The position numbers and the translations under genes are program-made. Of a stretch of DNA of 26,835 bases, positions 3,505 through 26,830 are shown one piece after another. The number at the start of each line of letters is the position of its first letter. The stretch's first letter is position 1. The stretch lies in NCBI GenBank assembly GCA_029717555.1, contig JAMDHS010000146.1, forward strand, positions 1 to 26,835. Reading direction: 5' to 3'. Below the pieces are notes generated by a model. The model ran no database searches and had not been told where the DNA came from. It saw only the letters and a list, made by a program, of their open reading frames with translations. This DNA is from Peribolospora baueri (lineage: Eukaryota > Basidiomycota > Peribolosporomycetes > Peribolosporales > Peribolosporaceae).

Positions 3505-5239
3505 ATGCCGAACAGCAACTCCCTTCCGTCGCTCCCTCAGTTCGTCGCGGTTCAAAAGCGCGCCTTCCTGGAGGGTTCGATCGAAGATGGCAAGCAGTTC
3601 GTGCTTTGCATCGGCAACGAGGCTGGAGGTGGGTTGTGTTCAGCGGCCTTGGTGCATCCGGCTTTGGCCCGCTTTGTATAGCGGAAGGACGAGGGGCAGA
3701 TGCCAGTATGGGCTGCGCGGCTGACACGGATGTGTGTACGCCGGCACCCTCGCACCAACAGATCTTGACTCTGCGGCCTCCTCCATGGCGCTCTCCTATC
3801 TCTTCACCTACTTCTCCCCTTCGCCGCAATCCACATCTTCCTACGTATTTGTTCCGCTTCTGCAAACCGACCGTGCGGACCTTAAACTTCGCCCCGAGAA
3901 CCAACTCGCCTTCTCTCTCGCCGGGCTGGACCCCGAAACGCTGCTTTGTCGCGACGACCTTTTCAAGTTGGGCGACGCTCCCAAGCGCCCGACGCACTTT
4001 GCGCTTGTCGATCACAACAGGCTTAACCCGAAGTGGCAGGAGTGGGCCGAGAGCCATGGCGGAGGCGGGCAAGTGAAGGCCATCATTGATCACCACGCCG
4101 ACGAGGGCGTACACGTCGAGTCGGCGGAGCTTGTCCGTAAAGTGATGAGTCCAACCGAAGTAGGCTCATGCGCCAGTTTAGTGACGGACTATTTTCGACC
4201 CGTCATTGAGGAGCGTATCAAGGAGGGCAAGCCCACACCTCCGAGCGCGCTCGCCGACTTGCTGCTGTCTGCCATCGCCATCGACACGGGTAATCTCAAG
4301 CCGGGAGGCAAAGCGAGGGACGTCGACCGCCGGGCGTTTGCCTTTCTTCTTCCACTTTCGAGCTTCGCCCAGGGAAAGCAGCAGGATTCGGTGCATGTCG
4401 TCCTCTCTGCTCTTCCCGAGAGCCTCAAAGGTGATGCCAACGAAGTGAGCGCCGAAGACGAGGGCCGCAGCGACGCCTTGTTCGAGCGGTACTTTTCAGC
4501 GCTCTCGCGAAGCAAATTCGAGATCAAGGATATGGAGAGTCGGGACTTGCTCCGAAGGGATTACAAAGAGATCGAAGTGCCCGTCCCCGATGATTCGCTT
4601 CGGGAGGAGGAAGGCAAAAACGGTGGCAAGGGGGGCACCAGCACCCCGTCCAGCGGCCGCGCACCCTTCCATATCAGAATCGGCTTCTCCACCGTCCCCC
4701 TTGGCCTGCACTTGTGGCTCCACCGTTCCCTGCCCGCGACGCCCTCAGGTGGACACCTCGTACGTCCGGACGACCTCTGGGCACCCTTCTGGGCGTCCCT
4801 GGACGCGTGGATGTCCGAGCGCAACCTCGATCTCGCCGTCGTACTCAACTCGTTCCGGGAGCCGCGAAAAGAGAAGAGAGAGGGGAAGATGGACACGAAG
4901 CTGCGGCGAGAGCTCGTCGTCTGTTTCCGGCATCGGCCGGAAGGGAAATGGGGCGTGGGGGCGTTGGACCCGGACGAGTTCTGGAGGAAGGTCAAGCAAG
5001 GTCTCGAGGAGGACGAGACTTTGGACCTGCAGGAGTGGAAGGGGGAGAAAGGCGAGGACCCATCGCAGCCTTGGAAGAAGTCCGCCGTCGGTGGGCTCCT
5101 TTCCTCATCCCCAGAGAATCAGAGCGGCGAGCGATGGGAGAAAAGGGCGATGGTGTGGAAACAGGGGAATGCCAAGGCGACGAGGAAGCAGGTCTTACCC
5201 ATTGTGAGAGCCGTTGTAGAAAAAGCAATTAGGAAGTGA
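3505..5239 (+). CDS. PPX1: Exopolyphosphatase Ppx1-like (DHH family)
   Basis: Releases terminal phosphate from inorganic polyphosphate. Two exons, 3505-3628 and 3762-5239, give 533 residues. The join creates the first metal-binding motif, NEAGDLDS (about residues 38-45). The other DHH-family motifs follow: VDHN (about 124-127) and IIDHHADEG (about 149-157), then EVGSCASLVTDYF and LLLSAIAIDTGNL. The C-terminal half fits a DHHA2-type domain but is loosely conserved and contains charged Gly/Lys-rich loops. Yeast Ppx1 is shorter (about 397 residues), the excess here being mostly C-terminal linkers. No presequence is visible, so a cytosolic enzyme is likely. The first exon is needed: without it the protein would lack the DLD motif. 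The stop is at 5237-5239. Confidence 0.93.
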
Positions 5240-6038
5240 GAATAGCGAATGAGCAGGTAGACCCCACCTGTCACTTCTTTCCGGTAGTAAGTCTATCCGA
5301 GTGAATAATAGTGTTCTGTTTTACGCCATGAGACAAACATACTGTAACATGTCCTTCACCATCGCAGGCACATATCCTCCCCACCTCCTCTCCCGCGAGA
5401 ACCATACATACGCCCTGGCACTGCCGGCTTGATCTCAAGAAACGCAGTTCGATGCCCGGCTGTATGTGCGTGCGCCATCGCATCGTCGGACGCCTTCGTC
5501 TTCGCTTTGAAGACCAATTTTATCCTTCTTTCGTTCGCCGAGGTGCGAGAGGAAAAACAGGAGCGCTCGACATCGGCCGTCCCGCAGACTTTTACCGTCG
5601 GAAACTTTGCCAGATTGCACCCAAACTCGCATGGAGGAGTTGGTCTGCGGGTTCTCAGCCCTCTGGAAAGGCTTCAGGCAGTCTAGGCTGCTAAGCTACG
5701 CTCGATGAGGCGCCCATAGCGTTCGTCGCAATGAGCCAGGTGCCCAGGGCTTAAAGACTTTCTGAAGGCACCTGCGATGAGTGCAGTGGTGCATGAAACT
5801 ACATTTGTATCTCCTCATTTGTATCTTCTCGTCCGCTGAGCTACCATCCGTGTCTCGTTCCGAAGGCTTCTTCCGTCGATGCCAAAGTATAATAACGAAA
5901 AAAAAAAAAAAAAAAAAAAAAAAGCGTCTTCGAAGCCGGCAGACAGCGTTCCTACCAGGAGCAAGCGGCTCCAATCACTTTGCTCTTCACCCAAAATTTG
6001 CAACCGCATGAGGTGGCTTAGAGCATGGGCACGCCCCG
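5240..6038. other. Tail-to-tail spacer between PPX1 and the beta-like ligase gene
   Basis: This 799-base region should hold the two 3' ends. It contains a run of 26 A at 5898-5923 and a 14-base near-perfect tandem duplication (catttgtatctcct/catttgtatcttct) around 5803-5830. On the minus strand there is an open frame of roughly 105 codons without an early ATG, ending at 5356, with stretches such as NERRIKLVFKAKTKASDDAM. It could be an exon of a small unrecognised gene or chance. I found no convincing start or splice pair for it. Confidence 0.4.
5898..5923. repeat. A26 homopolymer
   Basis: Uninterrupted run of 26 A on the plus strand (T26 on the minus strand). No upstream coding match and no flanking target-site duplication that I can see, so it reads as a simple homopolymer rather than a retrocopy tail. 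Confidence 0.95.
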
Positions 6039-8239
6039 CTATTCTCTGACCTGCTCCTCAGAAGCCGCTTTGGTCGCCGCCGCGGCAGCCTCGCGGAAAT
6101 CATCGAAAGTCCGGAAGGGAAGGTTGGACTCGTTGAGCTGCGAGAGGAGACGTGGCGTCCGGCCAGAAAGTCAGAGCGGTTCCCATCGCATCGGTTCACA
6201 CGCACACACGCGACAGGCTTGCAAGTCACCGGAAGACGGAACAAGAGCGCGGATCGGATAGGATGAACAACTCACGATCGCCTTGGCTTCCTCGGCCTTG
6301 TTTCCTCTCAGACGGACGATCAGCGGCACCTTGATTCCCAGAGTGCGTACGGCATCAATCATTCCCTGGGCCACCCAACTGCCAAGGCAAATGACGAGAT
6401 ATATGGGATCAGCTGCCAGCATCTCAGCAAAAGGGAAGTAATGGTCCGCAACGTCTCCAGTGTGCCGAAAGCCAGCTCACTCCGTCCTGGTGATGCCTCC
6501 GAAAATGTTAACAAAGATGCTCCGAACGTCCGGATCCTCGTTGATGAAGCCGAGGGCCTGCTTCGCGTTCTCGGCCGTCGCGCCTCCGCCACCGTCGAGG
6601 AAATTAGCCGGCTTGCCGCCAGCGAGGAGGAGACCGTCTACGGTGGACATGCCCATGCCCTGGAGCACATACGAACGTTTGAAAGAGGAGCGGATTCACA
6701 AACAATGTCCGGCGAAAGAAAAAGGCTCCTTTCTCAACTCTGGCGGATTTCGAGTGAGAACGGCGGACTCACCGCTCCATAGCCCATGCACCCAATGTTG
6801 CTGACAACCAGAAGGGAAAGGGGAAACGGTAGTTCGGGACGACGACGTCCGTCAAACTTGAGCCAATAATTCAATGCGAAAACGGAGGAGATGACGACTC
6901 ACCCTCCTCCAAACTTGCGGTACACCATTCCAACCTTCTTCGCCTCGAGCTCCAGTGGATTCACTTGAAAGGGATCGTCGAGCGCAAAGAGCTCCTTTTG
7001 GCGGTACGCTGCGTCGGTGTCAAAGGCCAGAGAATGGGAGGAGCTGTGGTACAGAAGCGAGAGAAGTGGAAGGACAAAGCACCATCAGCGCTCGTAGCTG
7101 ATAGTCGCCATTGACAGCTGCCGAAGCCCGACGTCCAACTCCAACGGCACTCAGTCCCGCTTCAGACACTCACACGACGGCGCTTCCATCCTCCTGAAGT
7201 GCGACCTCAACTTCAAACTTCGTTCCGTCCTTTTCCCAAAAAGCTTTCCAAAGACCGTTTACAATTCGTCTAATCTCCTCCCTCGTCACGCCCTCCAGGT
7301 CCTGCCCCACCTCGCCATCCAGCAACGCGCTCATCTCCTCCTCGCCAACGACAGCCGCGCCATCGTCCCCAACAGTCTTGGTCACATCCAGAGGGACGAA
7401 AGACACGGACGAAGGGAAGAGCCTCCGACCGTTGAGGACGGGTACTGTCGAGGGTAAGCGCGTCGCCAGAAGGCTCGGGCCCAGGTGCATTTTGCCCGTG
7501 GGGAGGCGGTAAGGGACTCGGTCGGCGAGAAGAAGAAGACGGAGGGGCGGGGAAGCATATGTGGGAACTTGGGTGAGAAGCGCCTGTTGTCAAAGATTGG
7601 GATGGTTAGGATCGTTCGAGGATTGCCGACACCGCACTCCTCCATAAAGCTCGACGGACTCGTCCCCGTCAGTCGGAACATGAGCCCCGATGGGAGACAT
7701 GGCCCTACTCGTGAGACCCACCGTGGAGCATGGCTTGTCAAAAGCGGGCGAATCGGGACTGGAGTAGGCCGAGCCAAGCATGGCTGCTGCAATCGAACCA
7801 GCCTGACTGGCGCTGTCAGAGTCATAGGGGGTTGGTTGCATGAGGGAGTGGAAGGCGCCTGCGTGAGCAGGTGCAGAGAATTGACGGCGCCGGCGAGCCA
7901 AAGGAAAAGGAGATGTACTCACTTTGAAACGACATGTCTCGCGCCTTTCAGCCCGGTCGTCCACTCGCCCCGCTCGAGCTCTCCATCAACGAGACCGGCT
8001 CGCACTTCCACTCTTCGCTTTCCCCTTCCTCCCGAGGCATCTGCCAATTGATCAAAAGCGTGGGCAGCATCGACTGAGGAGGACGCGGAGAGCTGTGGGA
8101 GTAAGGGTAGGCCATAAGAGTTGAGGAGCGAGGTAGTCTTTGCGACATGCAGGGTGAGAAGTCGGCGGAAGACGGTGAATCTTGTGCGCAGGGACGATGC
8201 GATGGTTGGCCGAAGGGCCGTCCACGTCGCACCAGACAT
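6039..8239 (-). CDS. LSC2-like: Divergent succinyl-CoA ligase beta-like subunit, mitochondrial
   Basis: Eight exons: 8239-7923, 7812-7638, 7583-7174, 7043-6903, 6800-6773 (28 bases), 6659-6481, 6378-6276, 6137-6039; 483 residues. The first 27 residues are Arg/Ser/Thr-rich without acids, suggesting import. The C-terminal ligase domain is clear: [16 protein letters not shown] (about 346-361), [26 protein letters not shown] (about 407-417) and [18 protein letters not shown]. The N-terminal ATP-grasp half is unusual. True beta subunits have an LHEYQ-type start, KAQ..AGGRGKG, EINPL and a metal-binding Asp; here these positions read [25 protein letters not shown] and VSSHSLAFD. The Mg2+-binding Asn and Asp and the usual Asn of NGAG (here YGAG) are therefore missing. 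These residues lie inside single exons or in well-supported joins, so mis-splicing does not explain them. Partner of the alpha-like gene next door; the reaction is unknown. Confidence 0.88.
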
Positions 8240-8513
8240 GACCGTTGCACGAGGGAGGACAGGATGTGGTTTTCCCTGGAGAAATCTAGAAGTCCGGACG
8301 CTGGCGAGGGGAGCGATGATGAGGTAGCAAGGAGCGTCTTGCGTGCTGGACAACCTCGTCGTCCCCGGCAGAGGTATGCGGCCGGAAGACGCCGGAGTGC
8401 GGGGTCGGGCCGAAGTAGAGGCCGATGGTGCTGGACTGGTCGGGCGACGTACACTGACTGATTGTATCACTGTATCGACACACACCACCTCAAACACGAC
8501 GACTGCACTGACC
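8240..8513. promoter_or_regulatory. Shared promoter of the two ligase-like subunits
   Basis: Only 274 bases separate the two divergent ATGs, so both subunits of what should be one heteromer are probably transcribed from a bidirectional promoter. I see no CCAAT box. The alpha side has ACTG/TGTATC-type short repeats near 8450-8480. Shared control is inferred from arrangement. Confidence 0.6.
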
Positions 8514-10047
8514 ATGGCGTCCTTCTCCAGGTCTGCTCTCGCCTCCCGTTCCTCCCGGTGGGCAGCGGGCCCAGGAAGAAGAGGCCTGGCGACGTACCGA
8601 GAGTGAGCATCGTGTTCTTCACCTAACCCGTCCTGACCCTGGCACCCACACGGCTGACCCGGACCCGCCTCAATGGGCCTCGTCAGCACGCTTCCCAACC
8701 TCGCGACCAGCTCGGAGACCCGGGTAATCGTTCAGGGGTTTACGGGCAAGGCGGTGAGCTAGGACAATCGTTTCGCTGCTCGCTGGCGACTCGCTAACGT
8801 GGGCCCGCGTCTAATCCGATCGCCCACCGAACGAACAGTCGACCTATCACTCAGCGCTCTCCCAGCAACTCGGCACCTGCATCGTCGGCGGCGTGTCTCC
8901 CTCCAAAGGTGGGACTACGCATCTCGACCTCCCCGTTTTTGACACAGTGCGCCAAGCAGTGCGTGAGCTTCGGCCTGAGGCCACCTCCGTGTTCGTGCCG
9001 CCGAAGCAGTGCGCGGACGCCGTACTTGAGGCTATTGAGGAAGAGGTGCCGCTCATCGTGGCTGTTGCTGAGGGGATTCCGGTCAAGGATCAAATGAAGG
9101 TGAGCCGCCTAATAGACGGGACCTGGAAGCCATCCGGCCCAGGTTCAGAACAGTGCGATCGCAAGTGAAGAGCCCATTCTTAACTCTCTTGCCCGCGCGC
9201 GCTTGCTCATACGCAGATAATGGCGGCCCTACAGTCTCAGTCCAAGTCGCGCTTCGTCGGAGCAAACTCCCCCGGATACTGTAACCCGGCGGGATGTAGG
9301 CTTGGCATCTCTCCCGTTACCGTCTGCAAGCCGGGCACGATAGGTTAGCAAGCCGCTGGGTCTTGTCCGCGGAGAAAGCGGCCGTATTGCCCGCTCATGT
9401 TCAAGAATAGGACTCGCCGCTCATCACCATATCTCCCTTCTTGACAGGTATCGTCTCCCGTTCAGGCACGCTCTCCTATGAGGCCACGGCCCAGACCACT
9501 GAGGTCGGTCTCGGCCAGTCATACATCCTCGGCCTCGGCGGAGACTACTACCCGGGCACGCGCACAGACGAGGCTCTTGAGTTTCTCCTTCGTGACGAGA
9601 GGACAGCAGGTGTGATCAGCAGCGGCCGCGTTCTCTCGTCTAGACCAAGCGGGGAGGTCGCAGTGACTCCTGCGTGTAGTGGACCACTGGGCTCATGGAT
9701 ATCCGGTCCATTCGGTTATTATTTTCTTCGCAGGCATCATTCTCATCGGCGAAGTCGGCGGCTCGATGGAAGAAGAAGCAGCCGCGCTACTCTCCACCCT
9801 CTCCCTCTCGTCCTCTCCACCACCGTGCAAGCCTATCGTCGGCTTCATCGCCGGACTGGCCGTGCCACCCGGAAAGAATTTTGGTCACCAGGGCGCGCTG
9901 TTCTACGATGGGGATGGTTATGGTAGGCCGATGGAGAAGCGGTCATTATGGGAGCGGGCAGGGATACGCTGCGTGGGCACTATTGGAGAAGTGGGCGTCG
10001 CCATTAGAGCAGAGCTCGACAAGGCCAAGGCCGAAAGTTCATCATGA
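8514..10047 (+). CDS. LSC1-like: Succinyl-CoA ligase alpha-like subunit, mitochondrial
   Basis: Six exons: 8514-8602, 8687-8753, 8839-9099, 9217-9343, 9448-9609, 9734-10047; 339 residues. The N-terminus (MASFSRSALASRSSRWAA...) is a plausible mitochondrial presequence. The CoA-binding Rossmann part shows VIVQGFTGKAS (about 43-53), GGVSPSKGGTTHL and NSPGYCNPAGCRLGI. The phosphohistidine part shows VSRSGTLSYE, LGLGGDYYPGT, IGEVGGSMEEE and GKNFGHQGAL, where H287 matches the phosphorylated His of the family. The overall order and length fit SucD/LSC1. Differences from ordinary subunits are GKAS for GKQG, SPSKGG for TPGKGG, PAGCR for PxECK, and FGHQGALFYDGDGYG for the usual MGHAGAI region. Catalytic residues are thus kept here while the beta partner has lost its nucleotide-site residues. 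An AATAAA lies 38 bases after the stop. Confidence 0.92.
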
Positions 10048-11894: not shown

Positions 11895-14800
11895 TCAAGC
11901 AGGAACGAGGGGACGGTAAACTGTCGAATGAGATGAAGGAGGACAGTAAACAAAATATGGGTGAGTGAAACAGATCGCACCGCCGGCTACCGACTTGCGA
12001 CGAGGAAAAACTATTTTCTTGCCGCCCAACTCACGCGGCTCCCACATGCTCCCATGCACAAGCTCCTCGATCGCCTTGGCATCGTTCACATCCTTGGGAA
12101 GCATATCTTTGTCCATCCTCGCGGCGCCTTCCTCAATGGAAGCCTTAATAACGGCTGAAGCGACCGCAATCGACACTTTTCGCACGTCCGCCACGTCGGG
12201 CAAGAGCGGGCCATCGGGATCCTTGAGGGCTGGAGACAGGGATGCGAGGGCCTGTACACCTGCAACGATCATCTCATCTGAGAGGCGCCGGGCGCGAGAG
12301 AGGATGACGCCTTGGCCGAGGCCTGGGTAAACAAGACACTGAGAATGGAAAGCGAGAAGAAAGGGGAGGGCGGTTGGAATGGTTTAGAGGATGCGTAAGA
12401 TGCTTAGCTCGAGAAAACGGTTATCGTCGAACGAGTGGGACGCCCCACCGCTGCCTCACGTTGTTACACTCGGAAACGATGTACTCCTTTCCAGTCTTGG
12501 GATTCTTCCACGGAGGGAAAGGGCTGCCAGTGGCAATGATCGCCTTCCCATCCGTCCATTGCATAACATCAGCTGTAAGAGTGTGGGCATGCAAACAAGC
12601 TTGGGATTAGTCTCTGCTTTCCCCGCTACACAGGAACAGACCTAACTCTATCCCTGTGGCCTTGGTCTGCACGAACAGAGTAATGCAGGGCTAGCTCACC
12701 AGGATCAACTTCGCAGAGCGTCGTAGGGTTGCTCAGTGGGAAGATGACCGGCCGGTCGACGTGCTTGGACATCTCGGTGATGACCTCCTTGCCGAACGCC
12801 CTAGCCTGGCCAGACGTGCCTATGAGCACAGTGGGATGGGCGTTGTGGACAACGTCGTAAAGCTTGAATCCTTCCCTACCAGGGTCGGCTTTTTCCCAAC
12901 CTTTCACTTCCTCTGGCTCACGAGCCATTTGGTAGTGAACTACGATGTGCAAAGCACGCAGAAGGGAAGTGGATGAAGTCAGCAAGGCCGTGCCAGATGC
13001 CAAGTTCAGCGCGAAGGTCACCCTCACTAGGTTTCATCTGCCTGCCTTTAACGACCAGCCCAAAACGATCGATAAGGCTGCACGACGGCACAATGGGAAA
13101 CCTTGGCTCAGCTTGCCTCCTCTGCAGAAAGTCAACTGGCTCAGACTCTTCACCATGGAAAGCCATCGCTCACTAGAACCTCTTGTTAGCCTCTTCCTTT
13201 GACAGGCCATCGATTTGCACCATAGCGTCCCTCATACGGGTGGCGATACCCATACCTGCCGTTCCGGGACCGAAGATGCATACCCTCTGGTCCTTGAGCT
13301 TGCTCTTCTTGATGCCCATCGCCGACATAATCGCTGCAAGCGTAACGGCGCCAGTTCCCTGGATATCGTCGTTGAAGCACGATACGCTATTTTGGTACTT
13401 GTCCAACAGGCGTTGCGCATTGGCGTTCCCAAAGTCCTGCATGGAAAAGAGAACATGGTCCAGTGTCATCGTTCGCAGGTCGTCAGAGAGCACGATGTGG
13501 CGGAAGAGCCAAGAAGACCCTCTCACCTCAAAGTGCAGGAACGCGTTGGGGAAGAATTCATCGACGGCGCGAACAAAGCTGTCAACATAGTCGTCATACT
13601 CCTTGCCCCGGAGACGGCTGTGGCGCCAGCCCATGTAGAGAGGGTCGTTGAGGTACTGATCATTGTCTGTACCGACATCGAGGACTACAGGGAGCACTCT
13701 GAGAAGCGCAGCGAGGGGATAAAATGAGTGAGCGACGATGACGGTGGTGCGATGCCAGCGGAAGGTGAGGTGCTGCAGAGAAGCTCACCGATTCGGATCG
13801 ACACCTGCGCCAAGAACGTAAAGCCTGAGGAACGGCCAAGCGCCACAAGGATCGATCTATGAACAGAACGCCGGCGACAGAACCGACTACGCGTACGGCG
13901 CCACCCTCAGCCCAGAACGCGCCATCGGTGGATAGCTCACGTTGTTTTTCCGATACAAATTTGCACGCCGCCCACGCCTTGATCCCCGATACCCAAGATG
14001 GCTTCCGAGTCAGTGACGACGACGAGGTCAATGTCGTTTTCGGTCAGCGCACCGCTATGAGTGAGACTCTTCCTCATCTGGTCGCTGTACCGGGGGCTGA
14101 TCCTCGAAGGCGAAGGGCCCAGCTTTTGACCTCCAACGTCCTCTCCAGACGCAGGAGGCGTAGGGGGACGAGAGGGAGCTTCAAAACTAGGCTTGTGCGT
14201 GGGGTAGGTGAGAAAAATACCATCCGGACGGCGGAAGAGTTGCGAGTAGTGCTGGATCGCTTCGCCGCTGTGGGCGTACGAACAAAAGGGAGATGAGACG
14301 AACCGGATACGAATGAGCAAATGCTAAGTTCAGGGATATCATGTGCAGTACGGTGGCTCACACTGTCGGAGTGTAAATGATGGGCAGAGTTGCCTTCAAG
14401 TGCTCAAGCAGGAGGCGGTGGAAGAGAACCTGGTTCTGCTCGCTGTCCGTTAGTGCGGAGGGAAGAGAGATCAGCCCTGGGAAGAGAGGTGGCTTTGGAG
14501 CCGATGCCAGCTTACCGCAGGGAGATGAGAAACGAGTATCTGAGGAGGTTGTTAGGGCGCGTGCAGAACTGATCCCATGCTCTCTGAACGTCGAGACGCG
14601 ACACGATCGATCGATGCGAAGTCAGCGGTCCCTGCGCAGATCCTGGCCACCTTGCTCTGAACGCCATAGGACACACCTTCAGTTGCTTCTCCAAAGACTG
14701 GACGTCATGAGGAAGCAGCCCCTCAAGGTCAAATGTCAGGCGCTCCTACATGGAAGAGAAGCAGGCGGGACCGGGTAATGAGATATTTGTTCGCTCAGGC

Positions 14801-15952: not shown

Positions 15953-18037
15953 TCAGTCCTCAAACTGCACGCCTACCCATTCCTCCCTCCAAGTCTCGTC
16001 TGAAGGTGCTCCGGCGGCGCTAGACACGCAGCAGTCCTTCTCGCAAACAAACACCACTGCGATCGCCCAATCGATCCCGCTTCGTTCCTTGGGGTCCTTT
16101 GCCGCCTCGGTAATCCGAGAGCCCCCGCTGCCTTGGTCGTCTGCGGGCGTCCGGCCGAGGATACGACTCAACTCTGCCCGTCGTTCGTCGTCTGTCTGAC
16201 TGGCGGAGTTTTTACCTCGCTCGGAGGAGGAACCGTCGTCGCGAGGAGACAGCGAGTGGGCGAGATGGGGCATCAGTTGGAGCTCGAAGACTCGCCTGGA
16301 GCCGCAGACCTCGCATGGGGGTACCCGCGAAGGATCGTATTTCCGCTGGTGCGAAACCGGTGCGGAGGGAGCAGAACCAGCAGCAAAAGCTCCTCCGGTG
16401 ACGGCTGTAAGTGTCCCTGGCGGCGGTGCGGAAGAGGACGGGTCGGGGAAGAGGAGAGAGTAAAGAGAACCGTTTGCGTTGTACGGTAGGGGTTCGCCGC
16501 CGAATTCGTATCTGATGACCGTAGGGGTATTTTTCAAAGGAAGACCTAAGTGTCTTTGAAAAGGACGGAAGGAATCTATCGCGCAGCGGCCTACTCACCT
16601 GATGCACTGCCCACCGTGCTCGCCCACCCTCTTGGCGAATTTTTCAAACACCTCATCTACCCCTTCGACAAACATCTTCTCGTATCCCTCCTTCCCCCAC
16701 TTCTCTGCCTTGTCTCCCCCGCCAATGTCCACGCCGGCCTCGGCGTCGCGTGCGGCCTTCCGTTGGGCAGCCGTCAACGAGGACATCGAGAGCGCTTCCC
16801 GACTTGACAGGCTTTCGGTCACAGTGGACAAGTAGAGCGGTCCGTATGAGGGCGCGTGGGGGGCCCAATCTGTTTGAAAATGCCAATATCGATAGCGAGA
16901 GCTCAGTTGCGTTGAAGTGTGGTACGGGCGGCGTGATTGTGGGAGGAATGGAAAGCACGCTCACCTTGCGAAGAATCTTTCTCCGCCAGACTCGCCTTTA
17001 TGGCAAGCTCTTCCGCCAGTTGCTCGTTTACATCCTCGTCCTCGTCCTCGTCCTCGCTTTCGCTTTCTTCCGAATCCTCCCTGTCGGCGTGCTCGCCTAC
17101 TGCGGTGGGCTCAGCGTCCGACGAGGCAAACAGGTTGTTTGGCGCCGCCGCCGCCGCCCCGCTGAATAGGAATGAGCCGAGATCGGAGCCGGTGTTGGTT
17201 TGCGAAGTCGAGGTCTGCGACTGGAACGATTGAGATGTGAGGAAACCGTTTTCGCTTCACGCTCTTCAACGTGCGCATGCACCCACCAAAAACGGGTTCG
17301 AGCTCTTCCCCTGCGCTTCCATCTTCTCCTTGTCCGCCTTCGCTCTCCGCGCCGCGTCTTCACGCTCCTGCCTAGCTTTCTCCTTTTCCTCTTTGGCCTT
17401 TCGCTTCTTGGAGAGTTTGGCTGCCCATCGCTCGTTGCGTTTCAACGTTCGTATCGCGCGGACGCTGTCAAGGACACGAAGCCAAATAGGAAGCATTGTA
17501 AATGGGTAGATCGCTTGTCGCGCGTTGGTGAAGGGTTAATTAGAGATGAGTGTCCGTGCTCACCTGCCGTCCTTCCGCTGACATCCCCTCCGAGCGCAAC
17601 CCCAAACCATCAACGTCCGATCATACTCGGACTCTTCGAGCGGCGCGAAGATTTGAGCCAAGAGCTCCATCAGGCCACCGCATACCTTGCATATGGCGAC
17701 GTCTGCAGGCGGCGGAGATGCTAGCGGGAGCCACGACTGTGAAGAGCGGGGACGGCAAACGGGAGACTTCATCAGCCCATCGAAACTCGGCGGCAAGCCA
17801 AGGCGAGACGTTAAATTGCAGGAGCATAGCCCCAACCGAATTATGTACACAAAAGAGAAGAGAAAGTAAAGAGCGAACTCCACCCACAGGGCGGCCGCCG
17901 ATCCTGCTGACGAGCGGGTTTTTCTCGTCACCCGGCTCGAGCGGACCGTCGTTGAGGCCTAGTTGGACGTCAGTGACGAGCGAGCCTACCGACTCGTCGT
18001 CCGAGTCGGAATCGTAGATGGGTCTCGGAGGAGGCAT
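15953..18037 (-). CDS. TSR4: Tsr4/PDCD2-like ribosome assembly protein
   Basis: Family members chaperone nascent ribosomal protein uS5 (Rps2) for 40S assembly. Six exons: 18037-17888, 17736-17564, 17464-17287, 17220-16965, 16869-16599, 16511-15953; 528 residues. The order fits the family: acidic start DSDSDDES, SRIGGRPSWLP, the first zinc-binding cysteines in CKVC (about 66-69) and WGCARRGCQRK (about 96-106), a charged Lys/Glu linker, a Ser/Asp/Glu-rich acidic tract, then the PDCD2_C domain. That domain contains WGKEGYEKM, QCIRYEFGGEPLPY, a second cysteine pair in CEVCGSRRVFELQLMPHL, and DWAIAVVFVCEKDCC. All intron phases agree. The first intron has a weak internal pyrimidine tract, but the SWLP junction matches the family. 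Confidence 0.93.
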
Positions 18038-18797
18038 GATGAGAAAGAAGGAGAGGGGGGGTGCTCGAAGGGGATAGGCTGGGGTAGGGTACCTAACAAA
18101 ACTTCAAAGTGGAAAAGCAACTTGGTCAGCTTTCACGCCGCCTCCGCCGAGCGAATGCCAAGGACAAGGAGAAGACTAAGGATATTCCTCCCCTCCACAA
18201 AACAAGTGCCTCAGAAATGCATGAATGGTAAAATAAAGAAGTCTCGTCACGGAGGCGTCCGAGCAAGGCGCGGTCAAGACGACCGGCGAAGGACAGACTT
18301 GTATCGGACTCGTCATCTAAGGAGTTCATCTTGGGTACAAGCAGGAGAAGGTAGGAGAGGGGGAACGAAAACAAATGGAACGGGACTCACCAAGGCAGAG
18401 ACGTATACTAGGGGGTTCGAGTGGTGGGGGTTTCAAGTGGTGGTGGTGTTGGAATGCTTCGTTTGAACGACGACGGCCGGTCGACTTTTTTTTTTTTCTG
18501 ATCGACGGATCGCCGCAGTCCGCAAACGCCGACGGCGTTCCCCTGTGCGCCCGACTTCGCCCTCCTTTCAGATCTCGTTGTCTTTATGTTCTATTCTTCC
18601 AAAATCTTGGTCTCGAGCGAGCTACCGGGTACATCGTACAGGCGCAAGTCCATCTCACCAGTTGGAGACTGCACGTCTCGTCGAGAGTCGTATAGGACCG
18701 ACTGCCTCGCGAGACGTTTGCTCACGCCTCAAATTCAACGGGCGCTCTTCCGTCATTTATTGCCGAATGAAGAGTGAAATCATTGCTCCTCCCGCGA
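18038..18797. promoter_or_regulatory. Spacer: TSR4 promoter and CYB2 3' flank
   Basis: 760 bases between two minus-strand genes. A minus-strand ATG at 18329 opens a 67-codon frame ending at 18126, upstream of the TSR4 ATG and not overlapping it. It could be an upstream ORF, a small gene or chance, and it matches nothing I know. A T-rich run (13 T) lies near 18486-18498. Confidence 0.4.
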
Positions 18798-21700
18798 CTA
18801 GGAGGCAGTGGATTTCGGCGAATCCTTGCCTTCGAAATCAAAGTCCGGAGGCGGCATCCACCCAGAAGGGTATGCTGGGCCAGGGTAATAGGCGCGTGGG
18901 AGAACGTCGAGCAGCTGAGGAGAAGACAGGGCGAAAGGACAAGTGAAAGGGAAGAGAGAAGGCGCAAGCAGACGGAGGAGGGCAAAGTCGATAGACCCAT
19001 GCAGAGCGGGTGAATGAGATGAGCAAGGGATGGATGCGAAAACAGGACCAAGAGCGAGAGCGCACCTCAGGCTTGAGCTGGTCCAGCCGAGTAACGCCCA
19101 GGAGTCGCATTCCACGAGTGATCTCGTCGTGTAGGACTATGGCCGAGCGGGCGACCATCGAGAATTAGGTACGGGGGGTAAAAGTGAATCACCGGTCGCA
19201 ACCACAAGAGAGGACACTGCCGGAAGCATCCAGTACTCACTTCCCCAAGCCCTCTTGACGCCCTCCTCTGCCCATCCGCTCTGGGCATACAGGAACGGTC
19301 GGCCGAGTCCGACGGCTTTGGCACCTAGACAGAGCGCCTTGAGGACGTCCGTTCCGCGCCGGACGCCGCCGTCGAGGTAGACTTCTAGCTTGTCAAACAC
19401 CTCTGGCGCTTCCTTCCGCAACGCGACTAGGACGTCGATGGACGGTTGGGCGCTGTGCGACAGGTACAGGAAGGCAAGGGCCGGGGAGCGGTGAGAAGAG
19501 AAAGTGGATTGGTTCGGCGTGCGATCAAAATCAAACTTACTAGTCTAGAGATCGACCACCGTGCTGCAAAAACGCAGAATAAAGCGAAGTGAGATGAACA
19601 TTCATTGGGAGGATAAGCGGTCAAGTCAAATGAAGGCGACAAAGTCACACATGTCAGAGGTCCCACGATACTGACGTTCGAGATGACGATACCTTGAACA
19701 CCAGCTTTGCAAGCCAGTTTCGCGTCCTGAAGGCCATGGAAGACATGACGTAAGAGAGCGAAGGTCATCAACAACTGTCTTCTGTCACGCTAGCACGGCT
19801 ATCCTCTCCCCGTCATGACCGCGGGCGCTTCACCTCACAACGGGTCGTACAATGATCTCGTCCTTTCAAACGCAACGAAACCACAACTTACTTCAACGGT
19901 CTGTATCCCTTTGAGCACGATGGGCAACTTAGTCTGCTTCTTCAACCACGCTACGTCTTCCCATGATAAGTTGGGGTCGATGTATCCGCTAATCGCGCCC
20001 GCAACGCCACCGGTCTTCGAACCCGAACCCGTGACGCTGCTGGGGGTGGGAGAGGAGCCGTAGTTTGCTGGACCCTGTGTGGGTGAGACGAAGAGTAATG
20101 GAACGTTGAAACGAAAGACAAAAAATGGACAAGAGCAGGTGCAGATGAGACAACGGCGTGCAGGAAACAGATATATACGTAGATAAACACTTTGGAAAGA
20201 TCTATTAAAGGAAAAGGACGGCTAGGCGGACTCACCTCTACCTCAACCTCCTTCACTCTCAAGTCTCTTTCTCTCTTGCCCATGACGTTGGCATCGACGG
20301 TGAGCCAGATAGCCTTGCAGCCCAACCTCTCGACCTTCTGAATGAGCCTCCGGCTAGCTTCGCGATCCCTGTTCATGTAGAGCTGGAACATGAGCGGCTG
20401 GTCCTCTCTCGTCTTGCTCTCCACCATCTCTTCCAGGGAACAAGACGCGTTGGCAGAGATGCCTTGGATGATGCCCATCTGTCCAGCTCCGGCAGTGAGG
20501 TTACACTCGCCGCGGGGATGTCCCAATCGAGCCATGGCGGCGGGGGAGATGTAAATGGGGAGCGTGACAGGATAACCGAGCATCGAGGTGCCGGCGTCGA
20601 CATCATCAAGCTGTCCTACTAGAACCCGGGGCTTGAAAAAGATACGGGAGAAGGCAGTTCGATTGGCATTGTGGGCTGTCAAAGGACGAAAGGAAGGCCA
20701 TGTTAGTTCAGATACAGCAAGCGGGAAAGACGGGGCAGATCAGTACGCCACCGTCCGGGGTCGAAGGAAGCTACACACTGATTTCGTCATCGCCAGCGCT
20801 GGAGTAGTAAGCCCAGGCTTGAGGAGAGAGAATAGCTTGCGCAACTCGCTGCAGAGAACATGAAATGGAAAGGCCGGCTTTCAGCGCTTTGGTTGCTGCA
20901 GGCTTTCAACCCAGATCTAAGTCAACAACAGGCCGGTCCACGCTCCACTGCCTGCTCACCTCCATATCATCCAAGTTGAGCACGGCTTCCACTGGAGGGA
21001 TATTTTCTCTCGCAACCCTCCTCCTTCTCTCCTCTTCCGTCTTCTCTTTGACGACGACTTTGACGGTCTTTGGGTCCACAGCGCCAACGTGCGCTTGAGG
21101 GCGCTCTTTAATGTATTCGGGCAGGAGGGTGGGCGCATGAATCGGGTCGAATATTTCACTTTGCAAAAGATAAAGACAAGGAAGAAAGAAAATAAAGTAG
21201 CAGTCAGCATAGCTAGCGTCCGGGTCCACTCTCTAAAGGAGCGAGGGAACCAAAGCCAGCAAGCGCAGCGCGGCGATTGGAACACAGCATGGCCACACTC
21301 ACGTAACGTCTTTGCCAGCGTTCTTAAGAATGGCCTTGACCCCGCCGGGATGGTGGTCAAGGAACCCCGTGAGGTCATACACCTGTCCGTGAATGACGAC
21401 CCAAGCGCTCTCCCTAGAGTTGTGCTTCTCCACCTCGGCCATGGTGATCATTCCTTCCACCGCGTGCCCTGCCGAGGACGTTTCCACTGTTGTTTCGAGG
21501 TCATTTTTACGTTTACCGGCAGAACCTTTGATGCGTTTGACGCTGGGAGGGGCGTCTGCTGAGACAGGGGAGTGCAGAAGGAGATAGAGAGCGGCGGACA
21601 GGGATATGGCAAGAGCGGTGTAGAGGATGCGGTGGGTGGAGAAAATCGAGGACTCGGACGAAGACGGGTTAGGGCCAGAGCTTGAGAAGGCTCGCCATTG

Positions 21701-22168: not shown

Positions 22169-23992
22169 ATGGCTTCGACGGTTTCATCATCACGACCGGG
22201 CTCAGCCAACGGTGCCGGAGATGCAGAAGGAGCAGTTCCGCTTGGAAAGCATCTCGCTTCCACTGGTGGGTCTCGCCATTAGCCATCTTCGGCATCTTAG
22301 TCGCCTTCGTCAACGCTGCGATGGCTCGTCGCTAACGCTTTGTCCTCCATTTTTTTCCTATTTTCACGTCGTTAAAACCCGTCGTCCTCTCTTAAAGAGA
22401 AGAAAGTGCGTGACAGAGCCATCAGGTCCCTGGCTGCCTTCCTCTCTCAAGCCTCCTCTCGCAACGATGGTGGTGACGAAGACGCGGATAGCCTCGATGA
22501 GGCCATCCTTCCGCCGAAGGAGATCGCCAAGCTTTGGAAGGGTATATTCTATTGTGAGTGCGAAGAGGATCTTGTTTTGCCAGAATTGAACGGCTAGATA
22601 GTCATAAGCTCTGCCATTCGGTGTCGATCGTTCAAGGTCAGCCTACTGAATATTGCCCCTTCCTCCAGGCTTTTGGATGTCCGACAAACCGCTAGTCCAA
22701 CAGTCCCTCGCCCAAGACCTCGCCGACCTCCTTCTCAAGATTTCCGCCAGCCCGTCTGAGAAGATCGATGAACAGAATCGGGGCAGTCTCTCTCGCGGAG
22801 GGAAAGCGAAGGAAAAGGCGACAACGAGCGCGAGGGCGCAAAAGATCAGGCTGAGGAGGGCTTTCGGCTTTCTCGAAGGGTTCTGGGATGCGCTTGTTAG
22901 GGAATGGAACGGCATCGATCGGCTGAGGTGAGTTGGACCGGCAAACAAACAGATGAGCACGCGGCCATCAGATTCCTCGGCAACGGTCTGACTGCTTGTA
23001 ACCCTGGCGATTTCATTCCTCGCTCACTATAAACCACAACACGAAGGATCGACAAGTATTACATGCTCGTCCGACGATTCGTCAACGCCTCTTTCCGACT
23101 TTTGGCACGAGAAGGGTGGGACGAGGAGGGATTGAGGGAGTATGAGAGGATCATGACCAAGACTGGGGGCCCATTGTGGTGAGTATTCGTTCTGTCGTAT
23201 TTTGGAACTTGGGACACTGGCGATTCTAATGGATTCATTTTTTGATGACTCGTATCAATTTTAACTTCCTTTTCCTTCTTTGTTAGTGTCAATGACCCGC
23301 GCGTCCCTGCTAGTATCGGATATCACCTCGCAGACATCTACCTCGACGAGTTAGAGAAGGCCCTTGGTGCGATGGAAGGTGTCGCCACCGGCGAACACCA
23401 AACGCTCTCTCAAGTCCCGCTCCTTCCCCTCCTCGCGCCCTTCTACTCCCTCCTCGCGGCCGTCCAGTCCTCTACATCGTTCGACCGTGTCCTAGAGAAC
23501 GCGATCAAGCCTGCCATCCAGGCTTGTGACGCGGCAGAAAAGGCGCTCGGGAAAATGTCGCGAACGGGCGAAGAAGGCGACGTTAAGGAGGAGAACGATA
23601 GACGGAGAGGTGACAGAAAAGAAGGTGGGCGAGAGAAGAAACGGCGTCGGGTCGCGGACTCGCGGTCGAATGGCACAGCGGAGGAGGCGGAGGCGGACGG
23701 AGACGGGGAGGACGTGGAAGGCGGTACAGCAGAGACGGATATGGATCGGCGGATGAAGCTGGCCATCGCAAGCACTCGCTTTCCGCGGATCCTCACTTTC
23801 TCCTCCACCTCCGCTCACGTCGAGTCCACATCCTCCGACCACTCCGAGCCGACGATGCGCCCGGCAAGGCTGAAGGACGCACTGACGCGCGAGCTGTTCC
23901 GGAAGAGCGAGGAGGAGGAGACGCGGCAGCCGAACAAGAAGAAAATGCGCGCGGCTTGGAAACGGGTTGGGGGTGCCCGCCCTGAGGACTAG
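22169..23992 (+). CDS. RRP1: rRNA-processing protein Rrp1/Nop52
   Basis: Nucleolar factor needed for 27S pre-rRNA processing and 60S assembly. Five exons: 22169-22265, 22398-22553, 22669-22927, 23047-23178, 23287-23992; 449 residues. The conserved Nop52 region is clear: [35 protein letters not shown] (about 71-90), [20 protein letters not shown], and [39 protein letters not shown] and PLC|VND are all created by splicing. The C-terminal third is basic and acidic in blocks ([20 protein letters not shown]), as expected of a nucleolar protein. The ATG at 22169 follows agaagc, and no earlier in-frame start is needed. It is divergent from CYB2. Confidence 0.94.
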
Positions 23993-24405: not shown

Positions 24406-26140
24406 ATGTCGCACGCGAATGGCATTCCCATCCCGCCCCGCTCCGGCGGGCCCTCCTCAATGAACTTGGGCAGCGTGGCGATATCTCCCAGCTCTCCTCC
24501 GAACCCGTTCAGCACCTCGCCCAGTCATGCACGCTCCGGGTCCCTGCCGTCCGGCTACACGGCGCCCAAAGTGCTTCGCCCCTTCAACACGAGCGAGATC
24601 CGCGTGCTCGTGCTGGAGAACATTAGCCAGGGGGCCGTGGCCATGCTCAAGGAGCAGGGGTACCAGGTGGATTTCTACACCAAGGCCATGGGTGAGGACG
24701 AGCTGGTGGAGAAGATCGGCCAGTACCACGCGATCGGCATCCGGAGCAAGACGAGGATCACCAAGAGGGTCATCGAGGCCGCTTCCAAGGTAGGTCGCGT
24801 CGTCGGACGAGACGCCACGAAGAGCTCTGCGTGCCTTGCGCAACGTGACTGAAGCGGACTGGCCGGCCGGGCCTCGTTCGTCTCCTTCTCCTTCTCCTCC
24901 TCCTCCTCCTTTCCCAGCTCCTCGTCATCGGCTGTTTCTGCATCGGCACGAACCAAGTGGACCTGGTCAACGCGGCCAAAGCGGGCATCTCCGTGTTCAA
25001 CTCGCCGTTCTCTAACTCTCGCTCGGTGGCGGAGATTGTGATCTCCGAGGTGATCGCTCTCTCGCGCCAGCTCGTGGACCGGTCGATGGAGCTGAAGCAG
25101 GGCATCTGGAACAAGGTATCGAAGGGGTGCTGGGAGGTTCGAGGAAAGACGCTCGGCATCGTCGGCTACGGTCACATCGGCTCGCAGCTGTCCGTGCTTG
25201 CAGAGGCGATGGGCATGACGGTGCTGTATTACGACGTCTTGCCTATCATGCCTCTCGGCCAGGCGCGCCAGGTGGAGACCCTAGAGGAGCTCCTCAGCTC
25301 GGCCGACTTCGTGACGCTCCACGTGCCGGAGCTGCCTGAGACGCGCGACATGATCGGCGTGAAGGAGCTTGCGTTGATGAAGAAAGGTTCCTATCTCCTC
25401 AACAACGCCCGCGGCTCGGTCGTCGACATCCCCGCGCTCATCGACGCCCTCTCGTCCGGCCACCTCGCTGGCGCGGCGGTGGACGTGTACCCCAAGGAGC
25501 CCGCAGCGAACGGCCCTTCGTTCAATGACCAGCTCAACCCCTGGGTTTTGGCGCTCCGCAAGCAGAAGAACGTCATCCTGACCCCGCACATCGGCGGGTC
25601 CACCGAGGAGGCTCAGAGGATGATCGGCCAGGAGGTGGCGACGGCGTTGGTGAGGTATATCAACTATGGCGGAACGTGAGTGCTTCGTCTACCTGGTCGC
25701 CGTCGGGGGTGGGCATGGGCGAGCGTCCGGCCTGTTCATATGATCTCTGTGTCCTTTCCAGCGTCGGCGCCGTCAACTTTCCCGAGGTCGACCTACGCGC
25801 GATCAGCGCCGAGGAGAAGCACGCCCGTCTGTGCTACGTGCACGCCAACCAGGTGAGAAGGCGAGGGTGGCGCGGACGGCACGACGCGGCCTCGGATGCG
25901 TCCCCGACGGGGTCTGACCGAGTAACCCCTGTTTTTTCTCGTCCCGCGCAGCCGGGCGTGCTCCGCGAAATCAACGAGATCCTCGCGGACCACAACGTGG
26001 AGAAGCAGTATTCGGACAGCAAAAAGGACATTGCCTACCTCATGGCCGACATTGCCGACGTGGACCAGGACACCGTCAGGGACATTTACGAGCGCATTGG
26101 CAGGACCAAGGCGAACATTCTCACCAGGATCCTCAGCTGA
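24406..26140 (+). CDS. SER33: D-3-phosphoglycerate dehydrogenase
   Basis: First step of serine synthesis: oxidises 3-phosphoglycerate to 3-phosphohydroxypyruvate with NAD. Four exons: 24406-24789, 24918-25675, 25762-25852, 25952-26140; 473 residues. After a Ser/Pro-rich leader (about 1-60, typical of fungal forms) come LVLENISQGAV, the substrate-loop region GCFCIGTNQVDL, FNSPFSNSRSVAE, and the NAD site GIVGYGHIGS (about 208-217). The catalytic Arg is in NNARGSVVD (about R293), the acid in YPKEP (about E322) and the His in TPHIGGST (about H352). A C-terminal ACT domain begins near PGVLREIN, the likely serine-feedback site. The ATG at 24406 is chosen; the frame is open a little upstream but has no earlier ATG. 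The first intron ends in a long CTCCTC tract. Confidence 0.96.
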
Positions 26141-26729: not shown

Positions 26730-26830
26730 CGACCACGGCAGGGGTCGAACCTGCGATCTTTGGATGTCTCCGAGCTGCTGCTGCTGCTGCGAATTCGTAG
26801 TCCAACGCCTTTCCATTTGGCCACGCGGCC
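26730..26830 (-). tRNA. tR(ACG): tRNA-Arg(ACG) with a 29-base intron
   Basis: Acceptor GGCCGCG pairs with CGTGGTC (two G-U pairs), followed by discriminator G. The D arm is GCC-AAATGGAAA-GGC. The anticodon stem TTGGA pairs with TCCAA. The loop CTACGA places anticodon ACG after the invariant T33. The variable loop is AGATC, and the T arm GCAGG-TTCGACC-CCTGC is perfect. The intron (26794-26766) sits at the standard place after position 37 and contains five CAG triplets. The D-arm and anticodon-loop sequence resembles yeast tRNA-Arg(ACG). CCA is not encoded, as expected in eukaryotes. Confidence 0.93.

What the first reader, a model, noticed from the sequence alone, without database searches (positions are those of the whole stretch)
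6039..10047. Paired succinyl-CoA-ligase-like system whose beta subunit lacks the ATP/Mg2+ site
Two divergent genes encode alpha- and beta-like subunits. The beta-like protein keeps the CoA-ligase domain but has [14 protein letters not shown] where true subunits have KAQ..AGGRGKG, EVEVAL for EINPL, and Ser where the second Mg2+ ligand (Asp) lies. The alpha-like protein keeps the phosphohistidine (H287). A heteromer with an active-site His but no evident nucleotide site could use another phosphate donor, act as a CoA-transferase or sensor, or regulate the ordinary enzyme. I know of no description of it, but cannot search.
Basis: partly seen in the sequence, partly recalled or inferred. Interest (0 to 1): 0.75.

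Follow-up and report, generated by a model that had tools for sequence, protein, structure and literature searches.

The report
Succinyl-CoA ligase-like pair lacking ATP site
A fungal genome carries two neighbouring, intact genes for a look-alike of a central energy enzyme, in which the half that should bind ATP has eroded while the half that handles acyl-CoA and phosphate is kept; what it does is unknown.

Summary
On the + strand (8514-10047) lies a six-exon gene for a succinyl-CoA synthetase (SCS) alpha-like protein (339 aa). Head to head on the - strand (8239-6039) lies an eight-exon gene for a beta-like protein (455 aa in my revised model). All 12 introns are GT-AG; 274 bp separate the start codons; both N-termini look mitochondrial. 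Pfam finds CoA-binding and CoA-ligase domains but no ATP-grasp domain (human SUCLA2 control: 251 bits). Of beta sites conserved in at least 98% of 109 bacterial rows and identical in two mammalian and one (recalled) yeast subunit, the window keeps 8 of 34 in the ATP-grasp half and 33 of 40 in the CoA-ligase half. K46, GRGK53-56, N199 and D213 are lost; no reading frame or tested splice alternative restores them. The phosphohistidine (His287) and its two glutamates remain. Alpha groups with human and yeast alpha on a very long branch. So this is a maintained SCS paralog pair without a nucleotide site. Function is inferred: most likely a nucleotide-independent acyl-CoA/phosphohistidine half-enzyme, with a regulatory pseudoenzyme as close rival. 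No own genome and no fungal collection is held, so a canonical pair in the organism and conservation in fungi were not testable.

The parts
8514..10047 (+). SCS alpha-like gene, exons 8514-8602, 8687-8753, 8839-9099, 9217-9343, 9448-9609, 9734-10047; 339 aa
   Evidence: Spliced model open, all five introns GT-AG; PDB 284 bits to human SUCLG1; Pfam CoA_binding and Ligase_CoA above cut-off
9886..9888 (+). Codon of His287, the phosphohistidine position (GHQGA; E. coli His246 in mature numbering)
   Evidence: Alignment A2, position and codon
6039..8239 (-). SCS beta-like gene, exons 8239-7923, 7812-7722, 7583-7174, 7043-6903, 6800-6773, 6659-6481, 6378-6276, 6137-6039; 455 aa (exon 2 may end elsewhere, for example at 7638)
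   Evidence: Pfam only Ligase_CoA
7961..8002 (-). [14 protein letters not shown], where canonical beta has KAQ..AGGRGKG (glycine-rich nucleotide loop)
8015..8032 (-). GGRGKR (beta 70-75), an upstream look-alike of the lost loop; probably a chance purine-rich run
   Evidence: Anchoring test; but chosen by the bacteria-dominated alignment
7197..7214 (-). EVEVAL at EINPL: Glu197 kept, Asn199 (Mg ligand, recalled) to Glu
7037..7039 (-). Codon of Ser275 at the position of the second Mg ligand Asp213 (ligand role recalled)
6078..6778 (-). CoA-ligase domain of beta (Pfam Ligase_CoA, beta 328-443), including NIFGGI (6492-6509); introns lie within
   Evidence: 33 of 40 conserved sites kept in the CoA-ligase half
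8240..8513 (.). 274-bp gap between the two start codons, presumed shared bidirectional promoter
   Evidence: Gene models; promoter function inferred; the bacterial-type promoter scan of 8200-8560 found 0 sites and says nothing about a fungus

Best explanation
This is a duplicated, strongly diverged pair of mitochondrial succinyl-CoA synthetase subunits that is maintained by selection as a pair. Shown: both reading frames are intact, the CoA-binding and CoA-ligase domains and the phosphohistidine with its two glutamates are kept, and the nucleotide-binding half of beta is eroded at the loop and at both Mg-ligand positions. Inferred: the proteins assemble into an alpha-beta heteromer in mitochondria, their joint site I still binds an acyl-CoA and phosphate, and His287 can be phosphorylated from succinyl-CoA (or another acyl-CoA) plus inorganic phosphate. 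That phosphate cannot then go to ADP. It is used to activate a second acid (net CoA transfer) or is released (acyl-CoA hydrolysis).
For: Intact spliced models with 12 of 12 GT-AG introns. Pfam finds no ATP-grasp_2 in beta even at E 10, while human SUCLA2 in the same call scores 251.5 bits. Sites conserved in at least 98% of 109 bacterial rows and identical in SUCLA2, SUCLG2 and recalled yeast LSC2: ATP-grasp half 8 of 34 kept, CoA-ligase half 33 of 40; Fisher p = 5e-6 for the first-model count of 10 of 34. Alpha keeps 79 of 108 sites conserved in at least 98% of 108 bacterial rows and identical in human, including Lys43, Asn123, the SRSGTL power helix, Glu209 and His247. The review PMC10342173 (passages) names His246-alpha, Glu208-alpha and Glu197-beta; all three are kept. 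HHalign still sees ATP-grasp ancestry over beta 28-296 (96.8%). The first 30 residues hold 6 and 5 Arg with 1 and 0 acidic residues. E. coli FdrA/AllF has CoA_binding and Ligase_CoA but no ATP-grasp and is part of a working enzyme (PMC11326118, passages), so the module can act without a nucleotide half. Random substitution from the window's own coding sequences (beta: first model) to 55% (alpha) or 60% (beta) identity gave 7.0 and 8.4 stops on average, minimum 1 and 3 in 100 runs each.
Against: Site I also shows losses: alpha His142 to Cys and Cys123 to Ser, beta Asn264 to Tyr and Cys325 to Thr. At 70-80% background retention, keeping the His and two Glu could be chance. No transcript, protein or relative supports the models. 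Beta 136-255 does not align better than shuffles to SUCLA2 or SUCLG2 (167 and 211 of 300 shuffles reach the score; 5 and 20 for recalled yeast and E. coli), so that stretch could be mis-modelled. Synonymous codon preference is weak in the ATP-grasp half (-5 bits against +15 in the CoA-ligase half, first model). There is no evidence for any substrate, and pairing rests on gene arrangement only.
Confidence: 0.42

Rival explanations
1. A non-catalytic pseudoenzyme pair: it binds CoA or succinyl-CoA and regulates or scaffolds the canonical SCS, 2-oxoglutarate dehydrogenase or another mitochondrial complex; the histidine is a leftover.
For: Losses are not confined to the nucleotide site (alpha His142, Cys123; beta Asn264). 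Alpha sits on an end branch of 5.3 changes per column. Subunits of different species can be refolded into working SCS (PMC7931218, passages), so mixed complexes with canonical subunits are plausible.
Against: A regulator would need only one subunit (inference); here both are kept in divergent orientation with the inter-subunit site I motifs SRSGTL and NIFGGI intact.
Confidence: 0.32
2. The complex still uses a phosphate donor through a remodelled nucleotide site (for example with Glu in place of Asn199 as metal ligand and the upstream GGRGK as loop), or an entirely different donor.
For: Glu197 is kept and Asn199 became Glu, a possible metal ligand; a GGRGK string lies 16 residues upstream; the bacteria-dominated MAFFT run aligns it to the canonical loop.
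Against: The KAQ lysine and Asp213 are gone, the upstream loop scores worse in 3 of 3 eukaryotic references, and Pfam sees no ATP-grasp at E 10.
Confidence: 0.12
3. A recently relaxed relic on its way to loss, perhaps transcribed but without a function.
For: Long branch, weak codon preference in the ATP-grasp half, and no clear similarity of beta 136-255.
Against: Both frames are open over 794 codons with intact splice sites although alpha differs from human at 155 of 299 aligned residues; random-substitution runs never stayed stop-free. The CoA-ligase half keeps 33 of 40 conserved sites.
Confidence: 0.09
4. An ordinary ATP/GTP-dependent SCS whose site is hidden by a wrong gene model.
For: No transcript data; one intron had to be remodelled, and six of the other open alternatives scored 5 to 9 units higher.
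Against: No frame of 6903-8300 on the - strand and none of 26, 24 and 33 open alternatives for introns 1-3 contains GGRGKG, K[AC]Q, E[IV]NP or D[AG][KR].
Confidence: 0.02

Closest known systems
Mitochondrial succinyl-CoA synthetase (SUCLG1 with SUCLA2 or SUCLG2; yeast LSC1/LSC2)
   Same: Alpha CoA-binding and CoA-ligase domains, phosphohistidine, Glu208-alpha and Glu197-beta, beta CoA-ligase domain, eukaryotic-type GLKG segment after the loop; alpha groups with human and recalled yeast alpha
   Different: No ATP-grasp match, loop and both Mg-ligand positions lost, alpha His142 lost, both subunits below NCBIfam cut-offs
FdrA/AllF of E. coli (part of oxamic transcarbamylase AllFGH)
   Same: CoA_binding plus Ligase_CoA domains without ATP-grasp
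   Different: One 555-aa protein that works with AllG and AllH; far in sequence (23% to E. coli SucD in A4; HHalign 79.8% over 170 columns against A2); no remnant of an ATP-grasp half found
Degenerate SucC/SucD pair of unnamed bacterial genome G031
   Same: Beta lost GGRGKG and EINPL, alpha keeps the histidine (GHMGA) and GEIGG
   Different: Arisen independently in a bacterium (inference); Asp213 and Asn264 kept; adjacent overlapping genes in a 1.2-Mb genome; a sub-threshold 14.7-bit ATP-grasp_2 match remains
Citryl-CoA synthetase and ATP-citrate lyase
   Same: Same superfamily; alpha matches 113 bits (6hxq_A) and 85 bits (6hxj_B)
   Different: Far weaker than SCS (284 bits); those enzymes keep the nucleotide half (recalled)

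Membership tests
Succinyl-CoA synthetase (ADP/GDP-forming) | Alpha: CoA-binding and CoA-ligase domains | tested here: met
   Pfam 78 and 71 bits, above cut-offs
Succinyl-CoA synthetase (ADP/GDP-forming) | Alpha phosphohistidine | tested here: met
   His287 aligned with E. coli H247 with Met, H246 mature
Succinyl-CoA synthetase (ADP/GDP-forming) | Glu208-alpha and Glu197-beta | tested here: met
   Both Glu
Succinyl-CoA synthetase (ADP/GDP-forming) | Alpha His142 (facilitative catalytic residue, recalled) | tested here: not met
   Cys in the window; His in E. coli, human and 99% of the alpha panel
Succinyl-CoA synthetase (ADP/GDP-forming) | Beta ATP-grasp_2 domain | tested here: not met
   No match at E 10; SUCLA2 control 251.5 bits
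Succinyl-CoA synthetase (ADP/GDP-forming) | Glycine-rich loop and Mg ligands Asn199, Asp213 (roles recalled) | tested here: not met
   G53E R54L G55E K56R N199E D213S
Succinyl-CoA synthetase (ADP/GDP-forming) | Beta CoA-ligase domain | tested here: met
   Ligase_CoA 71 bits
Succinyl-CoA synthetase (ADP/GDP-forming) | NCBIfam family cut-offs | tested here: not met
   Alpha 299.6 against 353.2; beta 219.1 against 370 (first beta model)
Succinyl-CoA synthetase (ADP/GDP-forming) | Nucleotide-dependent succinyl-CoA formation | not testable with these tools
   Needs purified protein
FdrA/AllF-like | Single CoA-ligase protein with AllG/AllH partners | tested here: not met
   Two separate genes; among the ten other window frames given to Pfam none matched a family of such a partner (not all window frames were given)
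Known CoA-transferase families | A CoA-transferase domain in Pfam | tested here: not met
   Only CoA_binding, Ligase_CoA and a sub-threshold Succ_CoA_lig found

The most novel reading that the evidence does not exclude
A nucleotide-independent succinyl-CoA-synthetase-type enzyme of fungal mitochondria: an alpha-beta complex that takes phosphate and acyl-CoA at site I, stores energy as phosphohistidine, and spends it on another acid or acceptor, giving a Pi-dependent CoA transferase or a succinyl-CoA/Pi sensor. The same outcome would have been reached separately in a reduced bacterial lineage.
Probability: 0.3. Interest if true: 0.75.

Novelty: new variant of a known kind. Interest (0 to 1): 0.5.

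Why it matters
Succinyl-CoA synthetase is the substrate-level phosphorylation step of the citric acid cycle. A maintained pair that has lost only the nucleotide half would separate its two chemistries in nature, and would let one ask directly what site I can do alone: CoA transfer, hydrolysis, or sensing of succinyl-CoA and phosphate. Automatic annotation is likely to name both genes plain succinyl-CoA ligase subunits (inference).

Tried and rejected
Own-genome search for a canonical pair: no genome is held, so this question stays open. Close relatives: none confirmed in viral contigs (beta: 15 pattern matches; alpha: 6) or in prokaryotic species genomes (beta: 187 pattern matches). In plasmids 104 records matched beta and 0 covered 80% or more of it; in the 30 rows listed the match begins at query residue 221 or later. 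These collections hold no fungi, so absence there says nothing about fungi.

Mapping the lost loop to the upstream GGRGK was considered and rejected on eukaryotic references, against the bacteria-dominated alignment. The retention counts for the ATP-grasp half (18 of 49) rest on that alignment; replace them. The first beta model (483 aa, 54-nt intron 2) was replaced; searches used it (the stretch tested is the same in both models), and repeats the Pfam test with the new one. Of 18 open alternatives for intron 2, six scored 5 to 9 units above my choice (1231) and one tied; I preferred GTGGGT...ACAACAG because its donor and acceptor look better formed, which is a judgement. The old model scores 1181. 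The coding-potential and random-substitution tests use simple models, three training pieces of the same window and uniform substitutions.

The neighbouring DHH/DHHA2 hydrolase gene (3725-5236) as a hint of a polyphosphate donor was thought of and dropped: adjacency alone proves nothing.

Since the first, returned version of this report I corrected the count of higher-scoring intron alternatives, narrowed the literature claim to the searches that bear on it, added the motif test, and lowered the ordinary-enzyme rival from 0.03 to 0.02 because.
Full report
What is there. The window is GC-rich (57%) and fungal in character: many short GT-AG introns, a match to the snoRNA family snR75 and a tRNA match of 101 nt, long enough for an intron. 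At 6039-10047 two genes stand head to head. The alpha-like gene has six exons and encodes 339 aa. The beta-like gene has eight exons. My first model gave 483 aa with a 54-nt intron 2 and a poor donor (GTGCGG). Enumerating open GT-AG alternatives against three eukaryotic references led to a 138-nt intron (GTGGGT...ACAACAG) and 455 aa, score 1231 against 1181; six of 18 alternatives scored 5 to 9 units higher with sites I judged worse. The start codons are 274 bp apart. The first 30 residues hold 6 and 5 arginines with 1 and 0 acidic residues, as in mitochondrial presequences (the comparison is recalled).

Alpha. It matches human SUCLG1 over residues 31-334 at 284 bits and has CoA_binding and Ligase_CoA domains. 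Identity is 144 of 299 to human and 131 of 289 to E. coli, against 192 of 289 between those two. His287 is the phosphohistidine. Of 108 sites that are at least 98% conserved in 108 bacterial alpha rows and identical in human, the window keeps 79 (36 of 52 and 43 of 56 in the two halves). Kept are Lys43, Asn123, the SRSGTL helix, Glu209 and His247 (numbering with Met). Lost are His143 to Cys, Cys124 to Ser and Pro122 to Ala. In a tree of 48 sequences alpha falls with human SUCLG1 and recalled yeast LSC1 (support 91/80; the bootstrap had not settled) on an end branch of 5.3, so its exact place is unsure; these are the only two canonical eukaryotic rows.

Beta. Only the CoA-ligase domain is recognised. 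Pfam finds no ATP-grasp domain in the revised model even at E 10, while human SUCLA2 in the same call scores 251.5 bits. Profile comparison of beta 1-296 with ten canonical beta subunits still gives 96.8% probability over 231 columns, so the region descends from an ATP-grasp domain. Local scores of beta 28-135 exceed 300 of 300 shuffles for each eukaryotic reference and 296 of 300 for E. coli. Beta 136-255 does not stand out for SUCLA2 or SUCLG2 (167 and 211 of 300 shuffles reach it) and only weakly for yeast and E. coli (5 and 20 of 300). Among sites conserved at 98% or more in 109 bacterial beta rows and identical in SUCLA2, SUCLG2 and recalled yeast LSC2, the window keeps 8 of 34 in the ATP-grasp half and 33 of 40 in the CoA-ligase half. 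Losses include K46R, G53E, R54L, G55E, K56R, N199E and D213S; Glu197 stays. The bacterial panel is biased towards canonical genes: the best 80 of 593 hits to an E. coli-led query and 31 high-scoring family hits from the class of a Rhodospirillaceae bacterium, after dropping duplicates, two E. coli loci and L114.

The loop question. GGRGK appears at beta 70-75. Forcing it onto the canonical loop costs 17, 14 and 9 BLOSUM62 units against SUCLA2, SUCLG2 and recalled yeast LSC2, compared with mapping GELER there. The bacteria-dominated alignment preferred the other. K46, N199 and D213 are lost in both. No frame of 6903-8300 on the - strand, and none of 26, 24 and 33 open alternatives for introns 1, 2 and 3, contains GGRGKG, K[AC]Q, E[IV]NP or D[AG][KR], so a different splicing of these introns would not restore the site.

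Is it a pseudogene? Both frames are open across 12 introns. Starting from the window's coding sequences (beta: first model), random substitution to 55% (alpha) or 60% (beta) identity produced means of 7.0 and 8.4 stop codons and never fewer than 1 and 3 in 100 runs each. In-frame synonymous usage scores +9 and +10 bits for alpha and beta on a scale trained on three other pieces of the window, and -32 to -90 bits in the other frames. Within beta it is weak in the ATP-grasp half (-5.1 bits) and positive in the CoA-ligase half (+15.4 bits). I conclude that the pair is maintained, with the ATP-grasp half under weaker constraint.

How it may work. The review PMC10342173 (passages) describes a histidine stabilised by Glu208-alpha and Glu197-beta that is thought to swing to the nucleotide site. 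PMC11494057 (passages) describes the two power helices that hold phosphate beside the histidine. The window pair keeps the first site largely and has lost the second. A two-site enzyme cut down this way could take phosphate from acyl-CoA plus Pi and pass the energy to another acid. The altered alpha His142 and beta Asn264 speak against full catalytic power, which is why a regulatory pseudoenzyme is a close rival. Both readings are inference.

Comparison with the known. E. coli FdrA (AllF) carries the same two domains without ATP-grasp and belongs to oxamic transcarbamylase (PMC11326118, passages), so nucleotide-free use of this module exists. Six searches of the open-access library aimed at paralogs or pseudoenzymes of this enzyme listed no paper on a nucleotide-less SCS pair; one search listed 15 of 19. 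The other four searches were for mechanism and precedents. PMC7931218 (passages) shows that alpha and beta subunits of different organisms can be refolded into a working enzyme.

A parallel. In 96 genomes of one bacterial class, 86 had a match to the SucC family. In one, G031 (1.2 Mb), the SucC-like match is confined to the C-terminal half plus the first 45 positions; another, G075, had only a weak hit to a 755-aa frame. The G031 beta (350 aa) scores 14.7 bits to ATP-grasp_2, below the cut-off, and its alpha keeps the histidine. The only other genome held of its order, G097, has a partly altered loop (SSERTKG) but keeps EINPL and the Asp, and scores 362.6 bits, just under the family cut-off. 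Neither has a detectable 2-oxoglutarate dehydrogenase E1 (0 of 2; completeness unknown). A search of 385 class genomes with the G031 beta at E 1e-50, a limit that ordinary SucC does not reach, found only itself. This looks like an independent loss of the same half, possibly reductive decay.

Limits. No fungal collection was available, no relative of the pair was found, and no structure was predicted. The claim is one genome deep.

Noticed in passing
L114 1522-3422 (G031:C39): Bacterial SucC/SucD pair with overlapping genes whose beta has lost the ATP-grasp loop and EINPL while alpha keeps the histidine; the sister genome G097 has a partly altered loop, and neither has a detectable 2-oxoglutarate dehydrogenase E1.
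   Followed up: partly
3725-5236 +: DHH/DHHA2 protein (exopolyphosphatase/pyrophosphatase type) convergent with the beta gene.
   Followed up: no
11898-13784 -: Malic enzyme exons beyond the alpha gene.
   Followed up: no
19954-20739 -: FMN-dependent dehydrogenase (lactate dehydrogenase/glycolate oxidase type) exon.
   Followed up: no
24849-25676 +: D-isomer specific 2-hydroxyacid dehydrogenase, perhaps phosphoglycerate dehydrogenase.
   Followed up: no
15956-16594 -; 23249-23989 +; 938-1336 -: PDCD2 C-terminal domain, Nop52, and TauD-type dioxygenase fragments.
   Followed up: no
18209-18334 -; 26730-26830 -: Rfam matches to the snR75 C/D snoRNA and to a tRNA that ARAGORN (bacterial code) did not report, probably intron-bearing.
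   Followed up: no
5898-5923 +: Run of 26 A residues between the DHH gene and the beta gene.
   Followed up: no
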